NCBI GenBank assembly: GCA_015066445.1
Contig: SVOK01000016.1
Span: forward strand, 1-44,613
Source of the DNA: Oscillospiraceae bacterium
GTDB lineage: Bacteria; Bacillota; Clostridia; Oscillospirales; Acutalibacteraceae
Direction of reading: 5' to 3'
DNA: 44,613 bases
The first letter of the stretch is position 1. Every line of letters starts with the position of its first letter. A program made the position numbers and the translations under genes. This document shows positions 3,479-44,613 of this stretch, piece after piece. The notes under the pieces were generated by a model. The model was not told the DNA's origin, did no database searches, and saw only the letters and a program-made list of their open reading frames with translations.

Positions 3479-4056
3479 TTATAGTACCTCCATTTCGGAG
3501 TTACCATAGCTTCGAAATCGAGATCGGTTGAAACTATTACTTTGAACTTTTGCTTTACACGCTCTTTTGGATTTGGTTTCGGCACCGGTAGGTCGAGAGC
3601 GTGAAGTAAATTATGCCAACTTGTAACATTGTAATATGGTGCCAAACCGCGCCAACTAATTACACCGCTTTTTCTACGATGGTCAAAATCATCACTGCTT
3701 GAAGGATGAAGTCTCAGATACTCTTCAACAAATGCTTTGGTGTGTTTTTCCTTGCGTTCTTCATATGTAATTTTGGGTACGGGATAATTTTCCTGCAGCC
3801 ACTGGGACAAGTTCACCTTGTACCGGTGTTTGAAAACGGGGTGCGGCGGCATACCTTTTTTCTTAAAATCGGTAGTCGTGGGGTAACGCCCCTCATCCTC
3901 TTTGAACTGCTCGATTCGGTCGCGAATCGTCTTGTCAGTCCAGTTCGTCAGCGGCATATCCTCCAAAATGTCGCTGAGTTTCTCGCAAATCTCGGTATTC
4001 TTTTGGTCTCGTGAGAGTTGCGAAATTGCCTTTTGTAATGCGGTTTTTCTGGTCAT
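3475..4056 (-). CDS. HNH-repeat-like (homing-endonuclease-associated repeat) protein
   Basis: 193 residues from the ATG at 4056. A TTG nine nt further upstream has its Shine-Dalgarno only 2 nt away and is rejected. Segments such as WTDKTIRDRIEQFKEDEGRYPTTTDFKKKG match the homing endonuclease associated repeat (W...I...I..F..E.GR.P...DF). A second, weaker unit follows around residues 95-145. No HNH metal-binding motif is visible, so it is probably a DNA-binding accessory module and not a complete nuclease. It begins inside the broken sigG frame and is coupled to the transglutaminase gene. Confidence 0.5.
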   Translation of the reverse strand: MTRKTALQKAISQLSRDQKNTEICEKLSDILEDMPLTNWTDKTIRDRIEQFKEDEGRYPTTTDFKKKGMPPHPVFKHRYKVNLSQWLQENYPVPKITYEERKEKHTKAFVEEYLRLHPSSSDDFDHRRKSGVISWRGLAPYYNVTSWHNLLHALDLPVPKPNPKERVKQKFKVIVSTDLDFEAMVTPKWRYYK

Positions 4057-4387
4057 AGCTTTCAAAATCCTTTCTTGGATTTCGACACTCTATAACCATT
4101 GGAACTGCATAGGTAGAAAAACGCACATTCTGTGTTATATCAAAATTGTCAATCGATTTTATAAGCCCTATACAACCAACCTGAAACAAATCGTCGAGAT
4201 TTTCTCCCCTGCCTGTAAAACGCTGAATAACACTAAGCACAAGCCTTAAATTACCGTTTATAAGCTCCTCTCGGGCGAGCTTGCTACCCGCCTTAACCTC
4301 TTTTAAAAGTCGTTCCTTTTCCTTCTCCTTTAAAAGCGGCAGCTTTGAAGTATCCACACCGCAAATAAAAACCTTGTTCTTATACAT
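3935..4387 (-). pseudogene. sigG: Truncated sporulation sigma factor (SigG N-terminal part)
   Basis: From the ATG at 4387 (GGAGGTG six nt upstream) the product begins MYKNKVFICGVDTSKL, the SigG signature, and continues through sigma region 2 (NGNLRLVLSVIQRF, DDLFQVGCIGLIKSIDNFD) to FSTYAVPMVI. Identity then stops abruptly near 4091. The next ~50 residues to the stop at 3935 are unrelated and lie out of frame with the HNH-repeat gene. Full SigG is about 255-260 residues; only ~99 remain, so regions 3 and 4 are absent. The remnant could bind core polymerase but not the -35 element. The cause is a rearrangement or insertion at about 4090. Confidence 0.85.
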
Positions 4388-4442
4388 TAAAGGCACCTCC
4401 GTAACTCTTGTTAAAATTATTACCCAGGTACCCTTACAATAA

Positions 4443-4470
4443 ACTATAAAAATATTTTTTGTTTCGACAA
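4443..4470 (-). promoter_or_regulatory. Possible sigma-A-like promoter of the sigG relic
   Basis: TTGTCG and TATAGT spaced 16 nt on the minus strand, about 55 nt before the sigG ATG. No convincing SigF/SigG-type promoter was found. Confidence 0.25.
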
Positions 4471-4497
4471 AGTTTACTTGATTTTTAAAAAGCAAAA

Positions 4498-32930: not shown

Positions 32931-32985
32931 TATATACTATATATTTATATTAACAAGTCATAAAAAAATTAATGTTTAAAGAATA

Positions 32986-33060
32986 TTGTAGGGGCAGGTC
33001 TCTGTGCCTGCCCGCTAATTATTGATTTTTGTGGGAGGGCATTGAAACCCTCCCCTGCAA
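32986..33060. repeat. Double-hairpin palindromic repeat downstream of gpmI
   Basis: Left hairpin GGGGCAGG...CCTGCCC and right hairpin GGGAGGG...CCCTCCC, bounded by TTGTAGGGG and CCCCTGCAA. Same architecture as 23348-23422. The rest of 32931-33111 shows nothing further that I can support. Confidence 0.72.
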
Positions 33061-33111
33061 ATTTAATTCAATTCGCACAGATAAACGTTAATTTATAAAA
33101 TAGTATAAACT

Positions 33112-33154
33112 AAAAAAGTAAGCACCAACCATAAAGGTCAGTGCTTACTTTTTT
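33112..33154. terminator. Bidirectional terminator next to attL
   Basis: Ten-bp stem AAGTAAGCAC / GTGCTTACTT with flanking A and T runs. Before integration it would have terminated the tRNA-Gly gene from the other side; it also ends the gpmI unit. Confidence 0.85.
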
Positions 33155-33179
33155 TTGGAGCGGGTGATGGGAATCGAAC
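33152..33179. other. attL: 28-bp direct repeat, partial tRNA-Gly 3' end
   Basis: Identical to 44544-44571. It contains the T-arm 3' half, acceptor stem and CCA of tRNA-Gly in reverse complement, then diverges at 33180. It is not a functional tRNA. Confidence 0.95.
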
Positions 33180-33287
33180 GCATAATAACCCAATTATATA
33201 GTATATATAAAATATTAACAGGCGTTAATATCGTTTGACACCTGTTAGGTCTAATTATTGAAATTTGTGTTTTGAAACTGCATTTTT

Positions 33288-33359: not shown

Positions 33360-34538
33360 TTATCCTGTATTACGTATATTTTCAATAGTTTCATCCAATT
33401 TCATAGCCGCATTTTTCTGTGCCGACTCGTATGTATGGCTATAAATTTGGAGTGTTAGGGCAACATCACTATGTCCTAAGTTATGCTGTACGGTCTTTGG
33501 GTTCTCTCCTTGCTCTATTAGTACAGAAGCGTATGTATGCCTAAGACCATGAAATTTAAGATAGCGTATTTTATCGCTGTGCCTTTCAAGAAATCTAACA
33601 TAACAATTAGTAACTCCTTGTGGTGTGTATGGCTCGCCCGTTTCCTTAACAAGCACATAATCACTATCAACAAAATTTTTTCCGTATTTCATCTTATTAA
33701 GCATATATTGATTGTGGTATTTTTTGAGTATATTAACGAGCCTTTGCGGTATGTATATCTTCCTTGTACCCGAATGTGTTTTAGGTGCTTTAATTGTTGT
33801 TTCTTTGTTTACCCTTATTCTGTTTTCAACAATATTGATATAGCCTTCTTCAAGATTTACATTGCACCATTTTAAACCGCACATCTCACCTCTGCGAACA
33901 CCCGACAACAAGGCTAAATTCATTATTAACTCTATATTCGGGTTATCGTCCTTTTCTGCAAGTTCTAACAATAAGTAAAATTCTTCAAGATTATAGGCTT
34001 CAACAGGCTTTCTTTGGTTTTTTGGCAATACTAATTTGCCCAACATTGGATTGGCTTCACGCTGTATCAAATGTTCTGTTACTGCTAAATCGAATAATAC
34101 ATTAAGCATTAACACATAATTTCTCACGCTCTTTGGCGATACCTTTGATGATAATAGGTTAATATAGTCCTGAATGTTACGGGTTTTTATGTTCCTGACT
34201 TGGCTTTTACCAAAATAATTAAGGATTCCGTGCGGTTTACTATTATAATAAACCGCTTTATAACCGTTCAGCGTTGAGGGTGAGAGGAACTCTGTGTAGG
34301 TTTTGAAATATATGTTACCGAGTGCTTCAAAGGTGATTTTAGGATTGTTTTCAAGGGATAACCCTCTTACTGCTTCAAGTTCCTTTTGAGCAACAAATTC
34401 TTTAACTGTTTTTAGCGGTGTACCGACAGGGAATGTCTTTGATGTGCGGTGGCGAGTACCATCCACAAATTTTGGCAAATCGTATATAGCCTTCCAATGC
34501 TCACCCTTGCCGTTCTTAACTTTAATTATGCTTGACAT
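33360..34538 (-). CDS. int: Tyrosine recombinase (element integrase)
   Basis: 392 residues: an N-terminal arm-type DNA-binding domain (~1-60), a SAM-like core-binding domain (~65-170) and a catalytic domain (~180-385). Catalytic residues are R215 (GVRRGE), K253 in APKTH, H330 and R333 (HGLRH), H356 (LGHSD) and Y366 (QIYSHTY), so it looks active. AAAGGAG precedes the ATG. Its position 180 bp from attL and its orientation toward attL are typical of tRNA-targeting elements. No excisionase was recognised. Confidence 0.96.
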   Translation of the reverse strand: MSSIIKVKNGKGEHWKAIYDLPKFVDGTRHRTSKTFPVGTPLKTVKEFVAQKELEAVRGLSLENNPKITFEALGNIYFKTYTEFLSPSTLNGYKAVYYNSKPHGILNYFGKSQVRNIKTRNIQDYINLLSSKVSPKSVRNYVLMLNVLFDLAVTEHLIQREANPMLGKLVLPKNQRKPVEAYNLEEFYLLLELAEKDDNPNIELIMNLALLSGVRRGEMCGLKWCNVNLEEGYINIVENRIRVNKETTIKAPKTHSGTRKIYIPQRLVNILKKYHNQYMLNKMKYGKNFVDSDYVLVKETGEPYTPQGVTNCYVRFLERHSDKIRYLKFHGLRHTYASVLIEQGENPKTVQHNLGHSDVALTLQIYSHTYESAQKNAAMKLDETIENIRNTG

Positions 34539-37717: not shown

Positions 37718-38368
37718 TTATTTTGATTTTACTGTCGATGTCGTCGATACCGTCGGCATTTTGGAAATTTTATCTGTGGGGTTATTATTCGCCAATATTT
37801 TATCGGTATTAAATTCCATTAACCGCCATTTTGAAGTCTTTGCTCTGATTCCAAGAAACAAAGGATGACACGCTCCGTCTGTTATATCACGCTCTGGGCA
37901 GACAATTTGATATATTTTGCCTTTTGGCAATTTTTTAAAGTATGTCTCAATAATTTTTTTCTTACTTTCGTTAACAGCCTTTGATGTCTCCATCGAATTA
38001 CCCCAAGCAACAATAAATTTGCACTTGTCAAGGTCTTTGTCAGCAAGTATAACATCTTCTATAAATTTCATATTTTCAGTATCTACTTGTAATCCTCTTG
38101 AAGATATACGGGAATTAACAACCCTTGAAAATAGGTTTATAATCTTTACCTCGTTAAACCCAAAGTCGCCCAAATGAGCAACAATGTGATTTAGCGTACT
38201 GTCATCAGCGTTCATATTATCGGCATTTCGGGTGGGAAACAACATAACTATAATACCTGTTTCACGCTCAACACCTTTTAATCGTTTGGTTATGCAGTAT
38301 GTATTCTTATTATCGGGACTGCATACTATCTCCGTTTCAATGCAAGAATTGTGTGTTACTGTTTTCAT
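37718..38368 (-). CDS. DUF1643-family protein
   Basis: 216 residues from the ATG at 38368, with GGAGGATTTTT upstream. The DUF1643 pattern is present: TGIIVMLFPTRNADNMNADDSTLNHIVAHLGDFGFNEVKIINLFSRVV, then FIVAWGNS and HPLFLG near the end. The family is common on plasmids, phages and islands; its biochemical role is not established. The last ~25 residues are a Thr/Ser-rich tail. It is 1 nt after the upstream stop, so coupled. Confidence 0.75.
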   Translation of the reverse strand: MKTVTHNSCIETEIVCSPDNKNTYCITKRLKGVERETGIIVMLFPTRNADNMNADDSTLNHIVAHLGDFGFNEVKIINLFSRVVNSRISSRGLQVDTENMKFIEDVILADKDLDKCKFIVAWGNSMETSKAVNESKKKIIETYFKKLPKGKIYQIVCPERDITDGACHPLFLGIRAKTSKWRLMEFNTDKILANNNPTDKISKMPTVSTTSTVKSK

Positions 38369-38369
38369 T

Positions 38370-38774
38370 TCAAAAATCCTCCGTATCAATATTTATTTTA
38401 TATTCTGTGTTTTGAATACTGCTTGAAAAACGCTCAATCTGTTCATCAGTTAATAGTTTCTTATTTGCAAGTATATCTACCGCAAAATCATCACAAATAA
38501 TAATGCAACCGAAAAGATATATTTCTTCACGGTTGCATTGCTTAATATGATATGTTTCAGTAAACTCAAAATTTTGGTTAATAGGCTCACTCAATCCCAT
38601 TGCCGAATAGTTTTCAAATTCCGCTCCGTTCTCAATTACGAAAATTGAACCGAAACAAGAAATGTTGTCAATTTGATATGATGTGAGAAGCCTGTTGAGT
38701 TCGGGTTTTGCTATGTGTTTTGCTCCTGAATCGCTGATGTTTTCCAAGTCTTTAATACAAGTTATTTTTACCAT
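38370..38774 (-). CDS. Unrecognised 134-aa element protein
   Basis: 134 residues, acidic, with a beta-strand-rich centre (DNISCFGSIFVIENGAEFENY, EEIYLFGCIIICDD) and a helical C-terminus. It overlaps the stop of the 40-aa ORF by 7 nt, with AGGAG upstream, and is followed after 1 nt by the DUF1643 gene, so all are translated together. No family recognised. Confidence 0.7.
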   Translation of the reverse strand: MVKITCIKDLENISDSGAKHIAKPELNRLLTSYQIDNISCFGSIFVIENGAEFENYSAMGLSEPINQNFEFTETYHIKQCNREEIYLFGCIIICDDFAVDILANKKLLTDEQIERFSSSIQNTEYKINIDTEDF

Positions 38775-39316: not shown

Positions 39317-39350
39317 TCCCCTACACCGCTATTTAAAGCAGTATAGGGGA
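39317..39350 (-). terminator. Terminator after the membrane-protein pair
   Basis: Stem CCCCTA / TAGGGG extended by pairing around an ATTTAA loop; on the minus strand it is followed by six T residues. It separates the 823-aa/membrane-protein block from the DUF960 unit. Confidence 0.85.
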
Positions 39351-39429: not shown

Positions 39430-39877
39430 TTAAATTTTCGGTCTTTCTTTGAGGTTTTTTACATATCCAAAAACATAAATTATGAATAGTAATCCATCCG
39501 TCAGCCAATAGAAAATATAAGTGAAGAATATATCAGCAATAGGGTATAAACTTTCTTCCCAAGATTTCCAAATAAAGCGATTCATACAAAAGTGTATAAT
39601 AATACAAAGTATAGTCGCTTTATCTATAATGTTACTTTTATGAATTTGCCTGTTCTTAATTGACAAATTAAAAATAACTAGGGTGATAAGTGTTAATAAA
39701 ATAATTTTAAATACGCTGTTTCCACCTAATAATAAGTCAAAGTAAGAGTAATAGTTACTATTTGATGGGTTATCAACATTAACCTTAGTTAATGCAGGAA
39801 AAAAATAGCAGCACTATGTATATTACAGATATAAATGTTGTTATTTTATATCGCTTTTCTAATATATTACCAATCAT
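39430..39877 (-). pseudogene. Four-helix membrane protein, frameshifted (paralog of 39881-40327)
   Basis: An ATG at 39877, 3 nt after the upstream stop, opens MIGNILEKRYKITTFISVIY...LLFF. A run of seven T residues (plus-strand A7 at 39799-39805) then shifts the frame into an early stop. With six residues the frame continues FPALTKVNVDNPS... through SIKNRQIHKSN... to KERPKI at 39430, about 148 residues with four helices. The restored protein aligns with the neighbour (LFFPALTK/LFLPTFIR; SLYPIAD/EFYPVGD), so they are duplicates. It may be a sequencing error, a mutation or phase variation. Confidence 0.75.
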
Positions 39878-39880
39878 AAT

Positions 39881-40327
39881 TTATGTGGTTATGTCCGTAT
39901 CTTGACTTGAAAGATAAGATATAAATATTGAAATTGCTAAAACAACATCTACTACTGAATAGTACCAAAAGCCTACGGTTGTATCTCCAACGGGGTAGAA
40001 CTCATTCAAGTAACCGCTACGCAATACGAAAAGCAATATTAAGTTTATAATTATTGCAACACCTTGTAATAGTGTAGCAACATTGGCTGATAAAAGTTGA
40101 GTAAGTATTTTTTCGCATAGAAAAGCAAAGATAATTGTTAAAATAAATAATATCACAGTAAAGGGTTTGATTCCCATAAACAGCATATTAAATATAGAAT
40201 GTTGTTCAGATATTTGTCCTGCCTGAACATTCCACCTGATAAAAGTGGGTAAAAATAGCATTGCAATATGAACTATCATTATTGCCATTGAAAGTTTTTT
40301 GATTTTAGATAATATAGTTATTAACAT
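39881..40327 (-). CDS. Four-helix membrane protein
   Basis: 148 residues, helices near 12-32, 50-72, 82-103 and 122-142. It starts 2 nt after the stop of the 823-aa gene with GAGAGGAAT upstream, so it is translated with that gene. It is a paralog of the next, frameshifted gene: both share the helix-LFxPxxxxxN-loop-helix start and a YPxxD...W/FWY...D motif before the last helix. No known family recognised. Likely partner of the 823-aa protein. Confidence 0.75.
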   Translation of the reverse strand: MLITILSKIKKLSMAIMIVHIAMLFLPTFIRWNVQAGQISEQHSIFNMLFMGIKPFTVILFILTIIFAFLCEKILTQLLSANVATLLQGVAIIINLILLFVLRSGYLNEFYPVGDTTVGFWYYSVVDVVLAISIFISYLSSQDTDITT

Positions 40328-40329
40328 TT

Positions 40330-42801
40330 TTATTCCTCTCCGTTTTCATTGATATACATTTGATTTGCAATTACACAAGCCACAATTTTTCCTATTTCAC
40401 CGATAGAACCAGGTAGTGTGATATTTAACGAATAATCTAATTTGGCTACTGATAAACCTTCAATACCCGCACTAATAAATTCGATATCAGAGAAATTGAT
40501 TTTTGTTGCGTCTGTAAGCATACCTTTTAAATAAATGGCATTTTTAGTTAATATAAAGCCATTTTTTGCATTGCCAAAAATAGTTGCATCAACCATCAAC
40601 AAAACATCTGTGTCCTGTATTTGTTCTTGAACATACGAGGCTTTGGCTTTTTGAAGCATAGTATTAAATTTAGGTGATGTTTTAGTAAATAATTTTGCAG
40701 TAATTATACTTTTATCAACCAAGTATTTATCTACATCAGCAATAAGTTCATCGGTACTGCTAAATGCTCTTTTGAATAGAATTACAAATATGTCGTTGCT
40801 TAACATACTTTTAAACACCATTTCGTGTGAATGGTATGTATTGCCGTAAATTTCAGCAAGTTCGTCATATTTCTTTTGTTGTTCTGCTTCCCTCTGTCTT
40901 CTTTCTTCCTCTTGGCGTGCTTTTTCTGCGGCTTCCCATGCTTCACGAGCAAGTCTTTCATTTTCTAAACGCTGATATTCTTCCTTTTCTTTTGTTTCAA
41001 CATCTGAAAACCTTTCATCTTGAATATCAAACATTCGCATAAGTTTAGCAAAACCCAGAGGTAATTTTTCTCCTGCACATTCATCTATATAAGCACTGTA
41101 AAATTCACATTCATAAGGGAATGTGCAAATTGCTTTTTCTAAAAGTTCCTTTTGCGATATAAATTTTAATTTTCGGTTATTTTCATCAAGAAACTCTGGT
41201 TTATATGAAAGAGAATATTTATTAGCAAGATATACCGCATAATATTTAACAGCCATTAAATAGTCATTAGCATATTTTCCTACTGCACTATTATCTTCGT
41301 TAATTCCAAAAAACTCATTCATTTTTTCGTAAATAAAATATGGAATTATAAGTAGTGTAAATTTCTTTTCCAATTCAATAAGTTTCAGGATATATTTTCT
41401 TGAGTTTTCAGTGATTCCAAATTCTTCTATTGCTTTTCCTACATATTTGTGTTCCATAGAGTTGTATTCAACAGCATTATGGATTAGTTCTTCACCTAAA
41501 TTAGCAATAGATGCAGTTAACATTCCTTTGATTGCACCCTTTGCACCAAAACCTCCACCTATAAAAGAGCCTGAATAGTTATTGGTATTTTCTTGGTATT
41601 GCTGATATTCTTCTATGTATGATGGCAAATCGTTAATATAAGAAGAATATTGCACAAACGGCAACTGAATTGCATAAGGATATAGAAAATCTTCGCCTTT
41701 TGAATTTTTATAGAAATCATTAAATCCCTTTTCCATTGCTCTAACGGTATCTAATAATTGAATATCGCTTATTGTATTTTTGTAAATGGATAATGAATAA
41801 CGCAAATCATTCATTAACAAGGGGAAATAAATACCAAAACAATTTTCAATAACTTTTAGGTATTCATCCAATGGCGTTTCTTTAGGATTTATATTTAATT
41901 TTTTCTCTATATCTTCTTTCCAAAGGTCAACAGGTGATTCGTTCAATATTTCATTTGAAAGAAGTGATATAGATGAAAAATTTGAAATGGCTGTTTCGTT
42001 ACCTTTAGCAGTAAACACCTTGCCGAATAACTGTATATTTAGTTCATCAGCGTGTTCTTCAAGATATTTTAAATGTTGCAATGTTCTTGGATTGGTTTCA
42101 CTTGCACCAACATTGTCTTTTTCAGGGGGAAATACTTCGGTGAATTTGGTTCCGTAGAAATCCTTAGAATCCAATCTTATCGGTTGCTTTGATATTATAT
42201 TTCCATTTGAGTCAACCTCTAATTTAATTCCTGTGAGATAATTTTCTTCGGGTTCGATATAATATTCATTTATCAAATCATCATCAAGGATATATTCACA
42301 TTCTTCTTCGGTTTCATTAACTTTAAAACATAATTCTGCTAAATTGCCGATATTTAATTTCATAAAATAAGAATTATAAATATCTGATACGAAAATTTCC
42401 TTATCGTTTATATTTTGAACTGCTAAATCAACATCAAATGGAAGCCAAGTTTTTTGACCGTCCATTGACATTTTTAAAAGTTTAGAATAAATTGTATTTT
42501 TCTTCTGCGGAATTTCTTCAACAGGTTCTTCCTTGATTTCTTCAATATCGTCATCGGCATATTTATCGTATTCATTAAAGCAATCATCATCTTGGACAGT
42601 TTCTTGAATTTCTTCGATTTCGTTTTCAAGGTCATTAGCAACCTCATTTTTTCGTTTCTTGATTATAATTAAAGAACGCTCGGTAGGATGTGACAGATAT
42701 GTTATACTATTACTGTTTTTTGATTTATAGAGTTGTCGGCTTCTGAATACAATCCTATCGTATAACTCTGAAAATAATGTAGCACTGTATAATTCTTTCA
42801 T
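40330..42801 (-). CDS. 823-aa multidomain protein with coiled coil and PH-like C-terminus
   Basis: By reading: an acidic segment at ~55-100 (EIEEIQETVQDDDC...); an unrecognised region to ~400; a glycine-rich amphipathic stretch at 411-435 (SFIGGGFGAKGAIKGMLTAS) that could touch a membrane; a helical region with FPYECEFYSAYIDECAG near 561-577; a charged coiled coil at 602-648; and a C-terminal domain at ~733-820 (GFILTKNAIYLKGML...INFSDIEFI) like a bacterial PH domain. AAAGGAG precedes the ATG. It forms a block with two small membrane proteins and a Mor-like gene. No nuclease or ATPase motif was seen; function unknown. Confidence 0.7.
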   Translation of the reverse strand: MKELYSATLFSELYDRIVFRSRQLYKSKNSNSITYLSHPTERSLIIIKKRKNEVANDLENEIEEIQETVQDDDCFNEYDKYADDDIEEIKEEPVEEIPQKKNTIYSKLLKMSMDGQKTWLPFDVDLAVQNINDKEIFVSDIYNSYFMKLNIGNLAELCFKVNETEEECEYILDDDLINEYYIEPEENYLTGIKLEVDSNGNIISKQPIRLDSKDFYGTKFTEVFPPEKDNVGASETNPRTLQHLKYLEEHADELNIQLFGKVFTAKGNETAISNFSSISLLSNEILNESPVDLWKEDIEKKLNINPKETPLDEYLKVIENCFGIYFPLLMNDLRYSLSIYKNTISDIQLLDTVRAMEKGFNDFYKNSKGEDFLYPYAIQLPFVQYSSYINDLPSYIEEYQQYQENTNNYSGSFIGGGFGAKGAIKGMLTASIANLGEELIHNAVEYNSMEHKYVGKAIEEFGITENSRKYILKLIELEKKFTLLIIPYFIYEKMNEFFGINEDNSAVGKYANDYLMAVKYYAVYLANKYSLSYKPEFLDENNRKLKFISQKELLEKAICTFPYECEFYSAYIDECAGEKLPLGFAKLMRMFDIQDERFSDVETKEKEEYQRLENERLAREAWEAAEKARQEEERRQREAEQQKKYDELAEIYGNTYHSHEMVFKSMLSNDIFVILFKRAFSSTDELIADVDKYLVDKSIITAKLFTKTSPKFNTMLQKAKASYVQEQIQDTDVLLMVDATIFGNAKNGFILTKNAIYLKGMLTDATKINFSDIEFISAGIEGLSVAKLDYSLNITLPGSIGEIGKIVACVIANQMYINENGEE

Positions 42802-42818
42802 AAAAATACTCCTTTTAA

Positions 42819-43115
42819 TTATTCTTCGTCAATATGTTCTTTTAATATTTTCCTAATCCATTTTTCTGTATAGCCGTACTTTGTAGCCAATTCCCGAACA
42901 TTATAGCCATTGTATTCTTCGACTATCTGTTTTACAATGAACTCCCGACTGAACAACTCCACAGGAAAAAACATCTGTGTCCCTCGATATTTCGAGTGAA
43001 TTTTTAGAACTGCATCAATACCAAGTAGTGCGGCAAGTTCACTGTATGCTCCGTTCAGGTATTCACCTTTGATTTTGACATTATCTATTGTTGGCATTAA
43101 ACATACACCTCGCAT
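42819..43115 (-). CDS. Mor-like HTH protein
   Basis: 98 residues. The pattern AYSELAALLGIDAVLKIHSKYRGTQMFFP followed by IVEEYNGYNVRELATKYGYTEKWIRKIL matches the Mor transcription activator family (middle-gene activators of Mu-like phages). Both the ATG at 43115 (AAAGGAG upstream) and one at 43097 (GAGGTG upstream) are plausible starts. It precedes the 823-aa gene by 17 nt and probably controls that block. Confidence 0.75.
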   Translation of the reverse strand: MRGVCLMPTIDNVKIKGEYLNGAYSELAALLGIDAVLKIHSKYRGTQMFFPVELFSREFIVKQIVEEYNGYNVRELATKYGYTEKWIRKILKEHIDEE

Positions 43116-43212: not shown

Positions 43213-43243
43213 GACCTATGCTCTAATACATAGAACATAGGTC
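43213..43243 (-). terminator. Terminator after the AbiTii-like gene
   Basis: Stem GACCTATG / CATAGGTC followed on the minus strand by six T residues. It isolates the AbiTii-like gene from the Mor-like gene, whose promoter should lie in 43116-43212. Confidence 0.85.
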
Positions 43244-43257
43244 AAAATGGTTATTTG

Positions 43258-44262
43258 TTAATTTGGGTATTGTAGTGATAGGATATCGCCTAAACAGATG
43301 TAAGTATGTATTATACATTGCATAGCATCTTCTTTGGAAATTTCATTATGAACACCTTTGCATTGTAAATCATTGAGAGTATCCATTCTATCAATTAAAT
43401 ATAGAATATTACTTCCTATTAAGCATTTGTTGGCAGATTTATCTTGCAACTTTTCAATTACTGCGGATAATTTATTTTTATAGTGTTCGCCACTTACATC
43501 AATTTCTTTGCCTGATTTGGTTTCATACATTTTTTCTGTATAATTAGGGAAATTGATTTTAAATAGTTCGTCTGCAACATCGCCAAATAATCTTCGACAA
43601 GTAGTTAATGCCTGTGAATACAGTTCGGGGTTGTTAGAATTGATTTTGTCATCAATCGCTCTTAATTTTGAAATGATATCCGAGGGAAGTTTTGAAAAGT
43701 AACTATCTACTTTTTCCCTATATACAGAAAAGACATCTGCTGTTGTACTGCTGAAAGATAATTCGATATGCTTCTTTGAAGCATAATCATAATATTGTGC
43801 TTTTAGTAAAGCAAGATTTTTTTCATCCTTTGCAATATTTCTTAATAATGAATTAGTAGCATCTGAAACCGTACGAGTTAAATTGCCCATAGCAACATAG
43901 GCATATTCTCCTGACACCGAAGCACCACTTGTACTATAATTATTTAAGGCACCCCTTTTAGAAAGAATACGTCCTTCCAATTCAGAAGATAGGTCAGTAA
44001 AAATCAATTTTTCTTTTTCTTTATTAAAATATCCCCGACCATGTTTCCAACCAATTTTCCAAGCACGTGAAAGTATATAACCATCTTCATCTTGTGGATA
44101 TCCACTGTTTTCGTATTCAAGCCATTCAATTGCATCAGTATCATTTGTTAACCTTGCCACCCGTAAACACATCATAAGCATTGAAGATGTTGTTAACGTG
44201 CCTAATTCAATTCCAGTTAATATTTTTTCGCAAGTTTCAAGTGCCTGTTCAAATTTTGTCAA
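43258..44262 (-). CDS. AbiTii-domain protein, probable abortive-infection defence
   Basis: 334 residues from a TTG at 44262 (GAGGAG 9 nt upstream). The N-terminal ~75 residues match the AbiTii domain: helices with LTTSSMLMMCLRVARLTND followed by IEWLEYENSGYP. The C-terminal ~230 residues are helical, including a segment LSSELEGRILSKRG, and are not recognised further. AbiTii-type proteins are linked to abortive infection in lactococci and other Firmicutes. It stands alone between a strong promoter and a terminator at the attR end, a typical place for cargo. The defence role is inferred from the domain. Confidence 0.75.
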   Translation of the reverse strand: MTKFEQALETCEKILTGIELGTLTTSSMLMMCLRVARLTNDTDAIEWLEYENSGYPQDEDGYILSRAWKIGWKHGRGYFNKEKEKLIFTDLSSELEGRILSKRGALNNYSTSGASVSGEYAYVAMGNLTRTVSDATNSLLRNIAKDEKNLALLKAQYYDYASKKHIELSFSSTTADVFSVYREKVDSYFSKLPSDIISKLRAIDDKINSNNPELYSQALTTCRRLFGDVADELFKINFPNYTEKMYETKSGKEIDVSGEHYKNKLSAVIEKLQDKSANKCLIGSNILYLIDRMDTLNDLQCKGVHNEISKEDAMQCIIHTYICLGDILSLQYPN

Positions 44263-44515: not shown

Positions 44516-44541
44516 GAGGACAAACTATGATGTCTGTCCTC
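44516..44541 (-). terminator. Terminator just past tRNA-Gly, supplied by the element
   Basis: Stem GAGGACA / TGTCCTC on the minus strand with a T-rich tract after it, so the integrated element gives the tRNA gene a new terminator in place of the displaced one at 33112. Confidence 0.75.
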
Positions 44542-44543
44542 AG

Positions 44544-44571
44544 TTTTTGGAGCGGGTGATGGGAATCGAAC
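44544..44571. other. attR: 28-bp direct repeat inside tRNA-Gly
   Basis: Same 28 bp as 33152-33179. It covers the 3' half of the T arm, acceptor stem and CCA end of the tRNA gene and five flanking bases. Confidence 0.95.
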
Positions 44572-44613
44572 CCACACGACCAGCTTGGAAGGCTGGGATT
44601 CTAGCCATTGAAC
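44548..44613 (-). tRNA. tRNA-Gly(TCC), 5' end outside the window
   Basis: Minus-strand sequence gives anticodon stem CCAGC / GCTGG with loop CTTCCAA (anticodon TCC at 44587-44589), T arm TGGG-TTCGATT-CCCA, acceptor 3' strand CACCCGC and encoded TCCA. The first ~9 nt (acceptor 5' strand and start of the D arm) lie beyond the window edge. It is the integration target of the element. Confidence 0.95.

What the first reader, a model, noticed from the sequence alone, without database searches (positions are those of the whole stretch)
39430..43115. Candidate undescribed system: Mor-like HTH, 823-aa multidomain protein and two paralogous membrane proteins
Four consecutive genes, tightly spaced and closed by a strong terminator, combine a regulator, a large protein (acidic segment, glycine-rich amphipathic stretch, coiled coil, PH-like domain) and two duplicated four-helix membrane proteins. 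They sit in the cargo part of a mobile element beside an AbiTii-like gene. A sensor plus membrane-effector arrangement would fit a defence module, but no nuclease, ATPase or toxin motif identifies a known system.
Basis: partly seen in the sequence, partly recalled or inferred. Interest (0 to 1): 0.78.

Follow-up and report, generated by a model that had tools for sequence, protein, structure and literature searches.

The report
Regulated membrane-protein cassette on mobile element
A gut bacterium carries, on a small piece of mobile DNA inserted in a tRNA gene, a set of four genes (a switch, a large two-part protein and two membrane proteins, one of them broken here) that recurs in another genus and most likely protects its host from viruses at the cell membrane, though this has not been tested.

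Summary
The block is real. On the minus strand lie a Mor-family regulator, an 823-aa protein and a duplicated four-helix membrane pair, closed by a terminator; the second membrane gene is frame-broken here. They are cargo of an 11.4-kb element bounded by a 31-bp repeat of the tRNA-Gly(TCC) 3' end. One full-length relative (goat-caecum Clostridia MAG, another genus) keeps all four genes in order, the second membrane gene intact. The regulator stays 90% identical while the 823-aa protein falls to 43%, and a perfect inverted repeat upstream of the regulator is kept and occurs once per genome. The C-terminal domain of the 823-aa protein is shared with BnzA of the Bunzi anti-phage system (firm); its middle carries a 'GGGFG' segment of an unnamed, sporadic protein family (moderate support). 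Related Mor regulators sit in similar elements ahead of other membrane-protein modules; one such element holds a BnzB homologue. Best reading: a Mor-controlled, membrane-acting, probably abortive-infection cassette that works like, but is not, Bunzi. Defence is inferred: some GGGFG proteins stand on chromosomes among ordinary genes, no experiment exists, and structure prediction never ran.

The parts
33152..33182 (.). left end of the element: 31-bp copy of the tRNA-Gly 3' end
   Evidence: direct repeat D2, 97% identical to 44544-44574
33360..34538 (-). integrase of the element, 392 aa (tyrosine-recombinase motifs read by eye; no profile search)
   Evidence: ORF; phmmer 2e-37 to a 380-aa ORF of L079
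35393..36913 (-). 506-aa P-loop protein of the element, perhaps replication
   Evidence: only weak Pfam matches below cut-off: nSTAND3 4.9e-4, DUF5906 0.026, VapE-like 0.037
37718..38389 (-). DUF1643 protein, recurrent neighbour downstream of the block
   Evidence: Pfam 3.4e-10; also in L012, L049, L072, L079
38370..38774 (-). 134-aa recurrent neighbour of unknown function
   Evidence: 39% to L012 over 119 columns; also L049, L069, L072
39011..39295 (-). DUF960 protein, SCC-type accessory gene
   Evidence: Pfam 5e-24
39317..39350 (-). terminator-like site closing the block
   Evidence: 14-pair stem, T-rich tail
39430..39877 (-). second membrane protein gene, frame-broken in this copy
   Evidence: C-terminal piece 78 aa; one stop inside the match; intact 150-aa copy in L012
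39881..40327 (-). first membrane protein, 148 aa, four hydrophobic segments
40330..42801 (-). 823-aa protein: N-terminal extension with acidic stretch (about 1-250), region with the GGGFG segment (385-444; extent of the domain uncertain, perhaps 253-600), charged coil-like stretch (about 600-650), BnzA-type domain (700-778, perhaps to 823)
42819..43115 (-). Mor-family transcription regulator, 98 aa
   Evidence: Pfam Mor 3.5e-11; PHROG late transcriptional activator 1.3e-12; 90% identical in L012
43154..43175 (-). conserved inverted repeat with 8-bp arms, overlapping a promoter-like site of the regulator: putative operator
43213..43243 (-). terminator-like site after the AbiTii-like gene, separating it from the block
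   Evidence: 13-pair stem
43258..44262 (-). AbiTii-like gene, neighbour cargo, not part of the block
   Evidence: Pfam 1.6e-6, PADLOC 3.9e-10, N-terminal only; not found in L012
44544..44574 (.). right end of the element within tRNA-Gly(TCC); the tRNA is cut by the contig end
   Evidence: tRNA completed on contig C13

Best explanation
A self-regulated defence cassette carried as cargo by a small tRNA-Gly-integrated element whose accessory genes resemble those of SCC elements. Shown: the block, the element ends, a conserved gene set in one relative, a conserved inverted repeat, the BnzA-type domain. Inferred: the Mor-family protein binds the inverted repeat upstream of its own gene and sets the level of one transcript that runs through the 823-aa gene and the membrane pair to the terminator. 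The 823-aa protein is soluble; its BnzA-type end or its fast-changing N-terminal extension senses infection or positions the protein, and its glycine-rich GGGFG region engages the membrane. The paired four-helix proteins are its membrane anchor or channel. On infection the complex disturbs the membrane and stops phage growth at the cost of the cell. In this genome the second membrane gene is broken, so this copy may be inactive or work with one membrane partner.
For: Same four genes in order in another genus (record JAFQBX010000018.1). Regulator dN 0.06 with saturated synonymous sites (pS 0.81), against dN 0.52 for the 823-aa protein and for TM1: purifying selection on the switch and faster change elsewhere, not recent exchange of the regulator. 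Inverted repeat identical in its arms in both, one site per genome with up to 3 mismatches, reversed-pattern control 0. BnzA-type domain: PADLOC 1.5e-8 at residues 723-776; a five-protein model without the block's proteins finds the window at 1.1e-14 and G437 at 2.3e-13, 0 of 200 shuffled sequences reported. GGGFG segment: models without the window find it at 9.4e-9 (50 of 303 positions) and 1.3e-6 (60 of 307 positions). A gene of this GGGFG kind follows the Mor gene in 4 of 20 Mor genes examined. A BnzB homologue (1.6e-26, profile 37-500 of 504) lies in a Mor-containing element of similar layout, L072. A GGGFG protein lies about 1.6 kb from a CBASS-type operon on an Acinetobacter plasmid. AbiTii-like neighbour.
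Against: No phage phenotype, no enzyme motif, no solved or predicted structure. The 831-aa relative gave no PADLOC match at 0.1 and was not reported by the GGGFG model at E 10, so GGGFG homology of the block's protein rests on one segment of 50-60 residues. Some GGGFG proteins lie on chromosomes among ordinary genes (L021, L023, L037, L038; L004 between ordinary and prophage-like genes, all read by eye). In L072 a WYL-type regulator (read by eye) lies between the Mor gene and the Bunzi-like pair, so that pair need not be under Mor. Only two copies of the four-gene block were found, one of them broken. Six protein scans and one operator scan of viral contigs found none. By my reading 11 of 20 Mor genes have no small or four-helix membrane protein or GGGFG gene downstream on the same strand, some on short contigs.
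Confidence: 0.47

Rival explanations
1. Superinfection or transfer exclusion: the membrane pair and the 823-aa protein keep out a second copy of the element or related plasmids and phages at the envelope, rather than killing infected cells.
For: Membrane pair, mobile carriage, and the 134-aa and DUF1643 genes that recur downstream.
Against: Exclusion proteins are usually single small membrane proteins (recalled); nothing here ties the large protein to DNA entry.
Confidence: 0.2
2. Envelope or stress maintenance: proteins with GGGFG or BnzA-type domains are general membrane-associated proteins, and the block is a stress-response set that happens to ride on an element.
For: GGGFG proteins in ordinary chromosomal surroundings in L021, L023, L037, L038; SHOCT partners in other Mor modules at or above cut-off, zinc-ribbon and lipocalin-like ones below it.
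Against: Sporadic occurrence (3 of 299 genomes, one of them the window's own) and fast divergence fit accessory defence better, though relaxed constraint would look similar.
Confidence: 0.22
3. Element biology: the Mor-like protein is the element's late activator and the block serves its excision, replication or packaging.
For: Mor family and phage late-activator matches; conserved order with DUF1643.
Against: Mor-like genes precede quite different cargo elsewhere, including lipoprotein-like and protease-like ORFs read by eye; only one operator per genome, upstream of the regulator itself; no phage structural family matched in the 10 element proteins scanned.
Confidence: 0.11

Closest known systems
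Bunzi anti-phage system (BnzA + BnzB)
   Same: The C-terminal domain of the 823-aa protein matches the N-terminal domain of BnzA; a BnzB homologue lies in a Mor-containing element of similar layout.
   Different: PADLOC match covers 54 of 544 BnzA positions; no BnzB among the 7 window proteins scanned; different domain order and partners. That Bunzi has a TerB domain is from a table passage in PMC10952713.
Staphylococcal cassette chromosome (SCC) accessory genes
   Same: DUF960 and DUF1643, and a Cch-type DUF927/HTH_56 protein in the relative; PMC10581047 (one passage) lists DUF960, DUF1643 and cch2 with the ccr complex.
   Different: The window element has an integrase with tyrosine-recombinase motifs (by eye) and sits in tRNA-Gly; no ccr gene was looked for by profile.
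Mor/C late activators of Mu-like phages
   Same: Pfam and PHROG family; inverted repeat at the promoter.
   Different: One site per genome, upstream of its own gene; not in a Mu-like phage.
Unnamed GGGFG-domain proteins (L004, L007, L008, L020-L023, L037, L038, L049, L070)
   Same: GGGFG segment, and by alignment a PY...FG end; GGGFG together with the BnzA-type domain in L020 and L023.
   Different: None of the six other proteins aligned has the 250-aa N-terminal extension; membrane pair not found beside them except a single 95-aa membrane protein in L049.

Membership tests
Bunzi system | BnzA homologous over its length | tested here: not met
   profile positions 37-90 of 544 only; a BnzA-like ORF cut by a contig end, L013, matches 4-305 at 2.6e-72
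Bunzi system | BnzB partner | tested here: not met
   no BnzB match at E 1 in the 7 window proteins scanned
Bunzi system | N-terminal domain of BnzA present | tested here: met
   1.5e-8; 1.1e-14 with a model lacking the block's proteins; D, K, G, T invariant over 7 proteins. The 831-aa relative: no PADLOC match at 0.1 but 2.3e-13
Bunzi system | anti-phage activity | not testable with these tools
   needs an infection assay
Mor transcription activator family (PF08765) | curated score reached | tested here: met
   43.5 bits against 24.9
Mor transcription activator family (PF08765) | binds a dyad site and activates | not testable with these tools
   conserved inverted repeat only
SCC element | ccr serine recombinase | not tested
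   no profile search; the integrase read by eye has tyrosine-recombinase motifs
SCC element | DUF960 and DUF1643 accessory genes | tested here: met
   5e-24 and 3.4e-10
GGGFG protein family (defined here) | significant match to a model built without the window | tested here: inconclusive
   window 9.4e-9 and 1.3e-6 over 50-60 residues; the 831-aa relative not reported at E 10
AbiTii (neighbour gene) | full-length AbiTii domain | tested here: not met
   profile 4-52 of 189 in Pfam, 4-98 of 185 in PADLOC

The most novel reading that the evidence does not exclude
A plug-in defence slot: SCC-like elements of gut Clostridia carry a strongly conserved self-controlled Mor switch with its own operator, behind which interchangeable membrane-acting modules (GGGFG/BnzA-type protein plus four-helix pair, Bunzi-like pieces, SHOCT-tailed four-helix proteins) are exchanged; the block in the window is one undescribed module, and the GGGFG domain a new membrane-targeting defence domain.
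Probability: 0.3. Interest if true: 0.8.

Novelty: new variant of a known kind. Interest (0 to 1): 0.58.

Why it matters
If true it adds a membrane-acting anti-phage module with an unnamed domain, links it through a shared domain to Bunzi, which a 2026 review lists among systems of unknown mechanism (PMC12926258, one passage), and gives a searchable handle, a Mor regulator with a fixed operator, for finding further modules in poorly cultured gut Clostridia.

Tried and rejected
Close relatives by pattern scan: none in genome contigs with the single protein, one with the two-row profile; none in viral contigs with six protein queries or the operator. tblastn of the 823-aa protein: phages none, plasmids one 61-residue match. 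Plasmids with the 831-aa and 809-aa proteins: none; with the L004 protein: two Acinetobacter records. Solved structures: none for the whole protein, only matches at E 0.15 or worse for the two domain profiles.

G247 (8.6e-4, 44% over 66 residues) was dropped: the match lies in a 221-aa ORF that reads as a HAD-type hydrolase. The Pfam matches YabA and Stealth_CR2 and AgrC in NCBIfam are far below cut-off and were rejected. Full Bunzi membership was rejected. A virus or prophage was rejected: no structural family matched in the 10 element proteins scanned against PHROGs (integrase and DUF960 not scanned).

The empty site was not shown: tRNA-Gly(TCC) in three same-genus genomes (L031-L033) has no rpoB- or gpmI-like match within about 2 kb, so those genomes do not give a matching empty locus.

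L070 has the Mor-GGGFG pair, but its only predicted small membrane ORF looks spurious, and no DUF1643 or 134-aa gene was found there. L049 was in the GGGFG model, so its score there is by construction; it was recognised by eye. Of 20 Mor genes the strict motif CTAYACNNTTC is upstream of 9 and not of 11; the control was a mononucleotide shuffle (mean 0.024, maximum 1 of 20). The pattern was chosen after looking at some of these sequences, so the figure overstates significance. A DUF1643 gene was found in 5 and a 134-aa-like gene in 5 of 18 Mor loci; some loci are short contigs.

Papers: passages only of PMC10952713, PMC11206119, PMC11305592, PMC12926258, PMC10581047; others as search listings only. 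The original Bunzi paper was not read. No print of the block, its operator or the GGGFG domain turned up in those six searches, none of which could search the GGGFG name; this is weak evidence of absence.

Full report
1. What is there. On the minus strand lie a 98-aa Mor-family regulator (42819-43115), an 823-aa protein (40330-42801), a 148-aa four-helix membrane protein (39881-40327) and the remains of a second membrane gene (39430-39877), followed by a terminator-like site at 39350-39317. The second membrane gene is split between frames in this genome. Its intact relative in G437 has four hydrophobic segments at a hydropathy cut of 1.5 and three at 1.6. The AbiTii-like gene has its own terminator-like site (43243-43213) before the block's promoter region, so it is a neighbour, not a member.

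2. The element. A 31-bp repeat at 33152-33182 and 44544-44574 (97%) is the 3' end of a tRNA. Rfam sees the tRNA cut by the contig end. Contig C13 of the same genome starts with the last 79 bases of the window contig, completes tRNA-Gly(TCC) and continues with a 1268-aa ORF that I read by eye as rpoB. The element is thus about 11.4 kb, inserted in tRNA-Gly between this ORF and the ORF I read as gpmI, with an integrase at the left and the block at the right. A matching empty site was not found: in three same-genus genomes tRNA-Gly(TCC) lies elsewhere. DUF960 and DUF1643 are listed with the ccr complex of SCC elements (PMC10581047, one passage).

3. The block recurs. In 398 genomes of the family, 4 have a match to the 823-aa protein at 1e-3: the window, one full-length relative (G437, 43% over 3-819) and two short matches, of which one is the BnzA-type domain of L013 and the other was dropped. 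In G437 the order is regulator, 831 aa, 142 aa, 150 aa, then the 135-aa and DUF1643 genes, a 152-aa ORF and a DUF927/HTH_56 protein. The 134/135-aa pair is 39% identical, the DUF1643 pair weakly similar. AbiTii and DUF960 were not found in that locus. The search for related loci gives the record as JAFQBX010000018.1, a goat-caecum Clostridia MAG.

4. Selection and operator. The regulators are 90% identical with synonymous differences at saturation (pS 0.81, dN 0.06), against dN 0.52 (823 aa), 0.52 (TM1), 0.62 (134 aa) and 0.83 (DUF1643). Upstream, otherwise diverged sequence keeps GAACTGTG-N6-CACAGTTC followed by a -10-like TATAAT. With up to 3 mismatches the pattern occurs once in each of the two genomes, of which the window's own is 87% complete; the reversed control gives none. 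In the window it occurs once, against 0 in 100 shuffles. That the regulator binds it is inference.

5. The 823-aa protein. It has no transmembrane segment by hydropathy (maximum 1.53). The C-terminal domain is the best supported homology: BnzA in PADLOC 1.5e-8, and with a model of five other proteins 1.1e-14 for the window and 2.3e-13 for G437, none of 200 shuffled sequences reported. It also occurs in a J-domain protein and other proteins. The GGGFG segment (residues 385-444) is supported at 9.4e-9 by a five-protein model and 1.3e-6 by an eight-protein model, both without the window; a second piece at 550-596 is only 0.5, and G437 was not reported. The wider domain (253-600) rests on alignment. 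GGGFG proteins sit on Acinetobacter plasmids, one about 1.6 kb from a SAVED/Mov34/ThiF/nucleotidyltransferase operon (CBASS, name recalled) with a recombinase gene between, one with a reverse-transcriptase gene on the same small plasmid; one lies near a resolvase-like ORF (L022); others are on chromosomes among genes that read as ordinary (L021, L023, L037, L038) or between ordinary and prophage-like genes (L004). GGGFG together with the BnzA-type domain recurs in L020 and L023. In L037 and L038 a similar C-terminal segment can be read by eye, but the profile did not report it.

6. The regulator's other loci. Among 200 family genomes, 16 (window's own included) have a Mor match at 1e-8. Adding the human-faecal record MT839628.1, I examined 20 Mor genes in 18 loci. 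A GGGFG gene lies next or next but one downstream in 4 of the 20: the window, G437, MT839628.1 and G409 (848 aa, 2e-45, not in the model). MT839628.1, listed as an unverified bacteriophage clone, shows Mor, a 95-aa membrane protein, a GGGFG protein, a 134-aa-like gene and DUF1643 in that order. In G078 (L072) a Mor gene is followed by a four-helix SHOCT protein, a WYL-type regulator (by eye), a 184-aa protein weakly like BnzA (6.1e-7) and a BnzB homologue (1.6e-26), then 134-aa-like, DUF960 and DUF1643 genes. By my reading 9 of the 20 Mor genes have a GGGFG gene or a small or four-helix membrane protein downstream on the same strand and 11 do not.

7. Mechanism. The simplest reading joins a self-controlled switch, a soluble multidomain protein and a membrane pair into a membrane-acting defence. 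Sensing, membrane engagement and cell arrest are inferred. A conserved switch with fast-changing downstream proteins is what an arms race would give, but relaxed constraint would look similar.

8. Limits. One full-length relative; small survey tallies, partly looked at before the promoter motif was chosen; GGGFG homology resting on one segment; no structure; no experiment. The window copy itself may be defective.

Noticed in passing
window 32968-33096: About 129 bp beside the left end recurs 8 more times in the genome's listed matches, two of them partial (82-91% identity): a dispersed repeat.
   Followed up: no
window 3935-4495: ORF that begins like the sigma-factor-like 264-aa ORF at 751-1545 of L012 but diverges after about 130 residues: possibly a truncated gene; read by eye.
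   Followed up: no
L007 1-7710 (Acinetobacter pittii plasmid): GGGFG-domain gene about 1.6 kb from a CBASS-type operon, with a recombinase gene between.
   Followed up: partly
L044 4592-6310 and L043 4488-6992: BnzA-like proteins: L044 joins a BnzA-type start to long glycine-rich hydrophobic stretches; L043 has hydrophobic stretches near its C-terminus.
   Followed up: no
L071 and L073: Second Mor-like genes immediately upstream of a gene read by eye as a WYL-type regulator: paired regulators in these cargo regions.
   Followed up: no
window 44535-44613: Contig C27 overlaps contig C13 by 79 identical bases in tRNA-Gly: an assembly break at the attachment site.
   Followed up: yes
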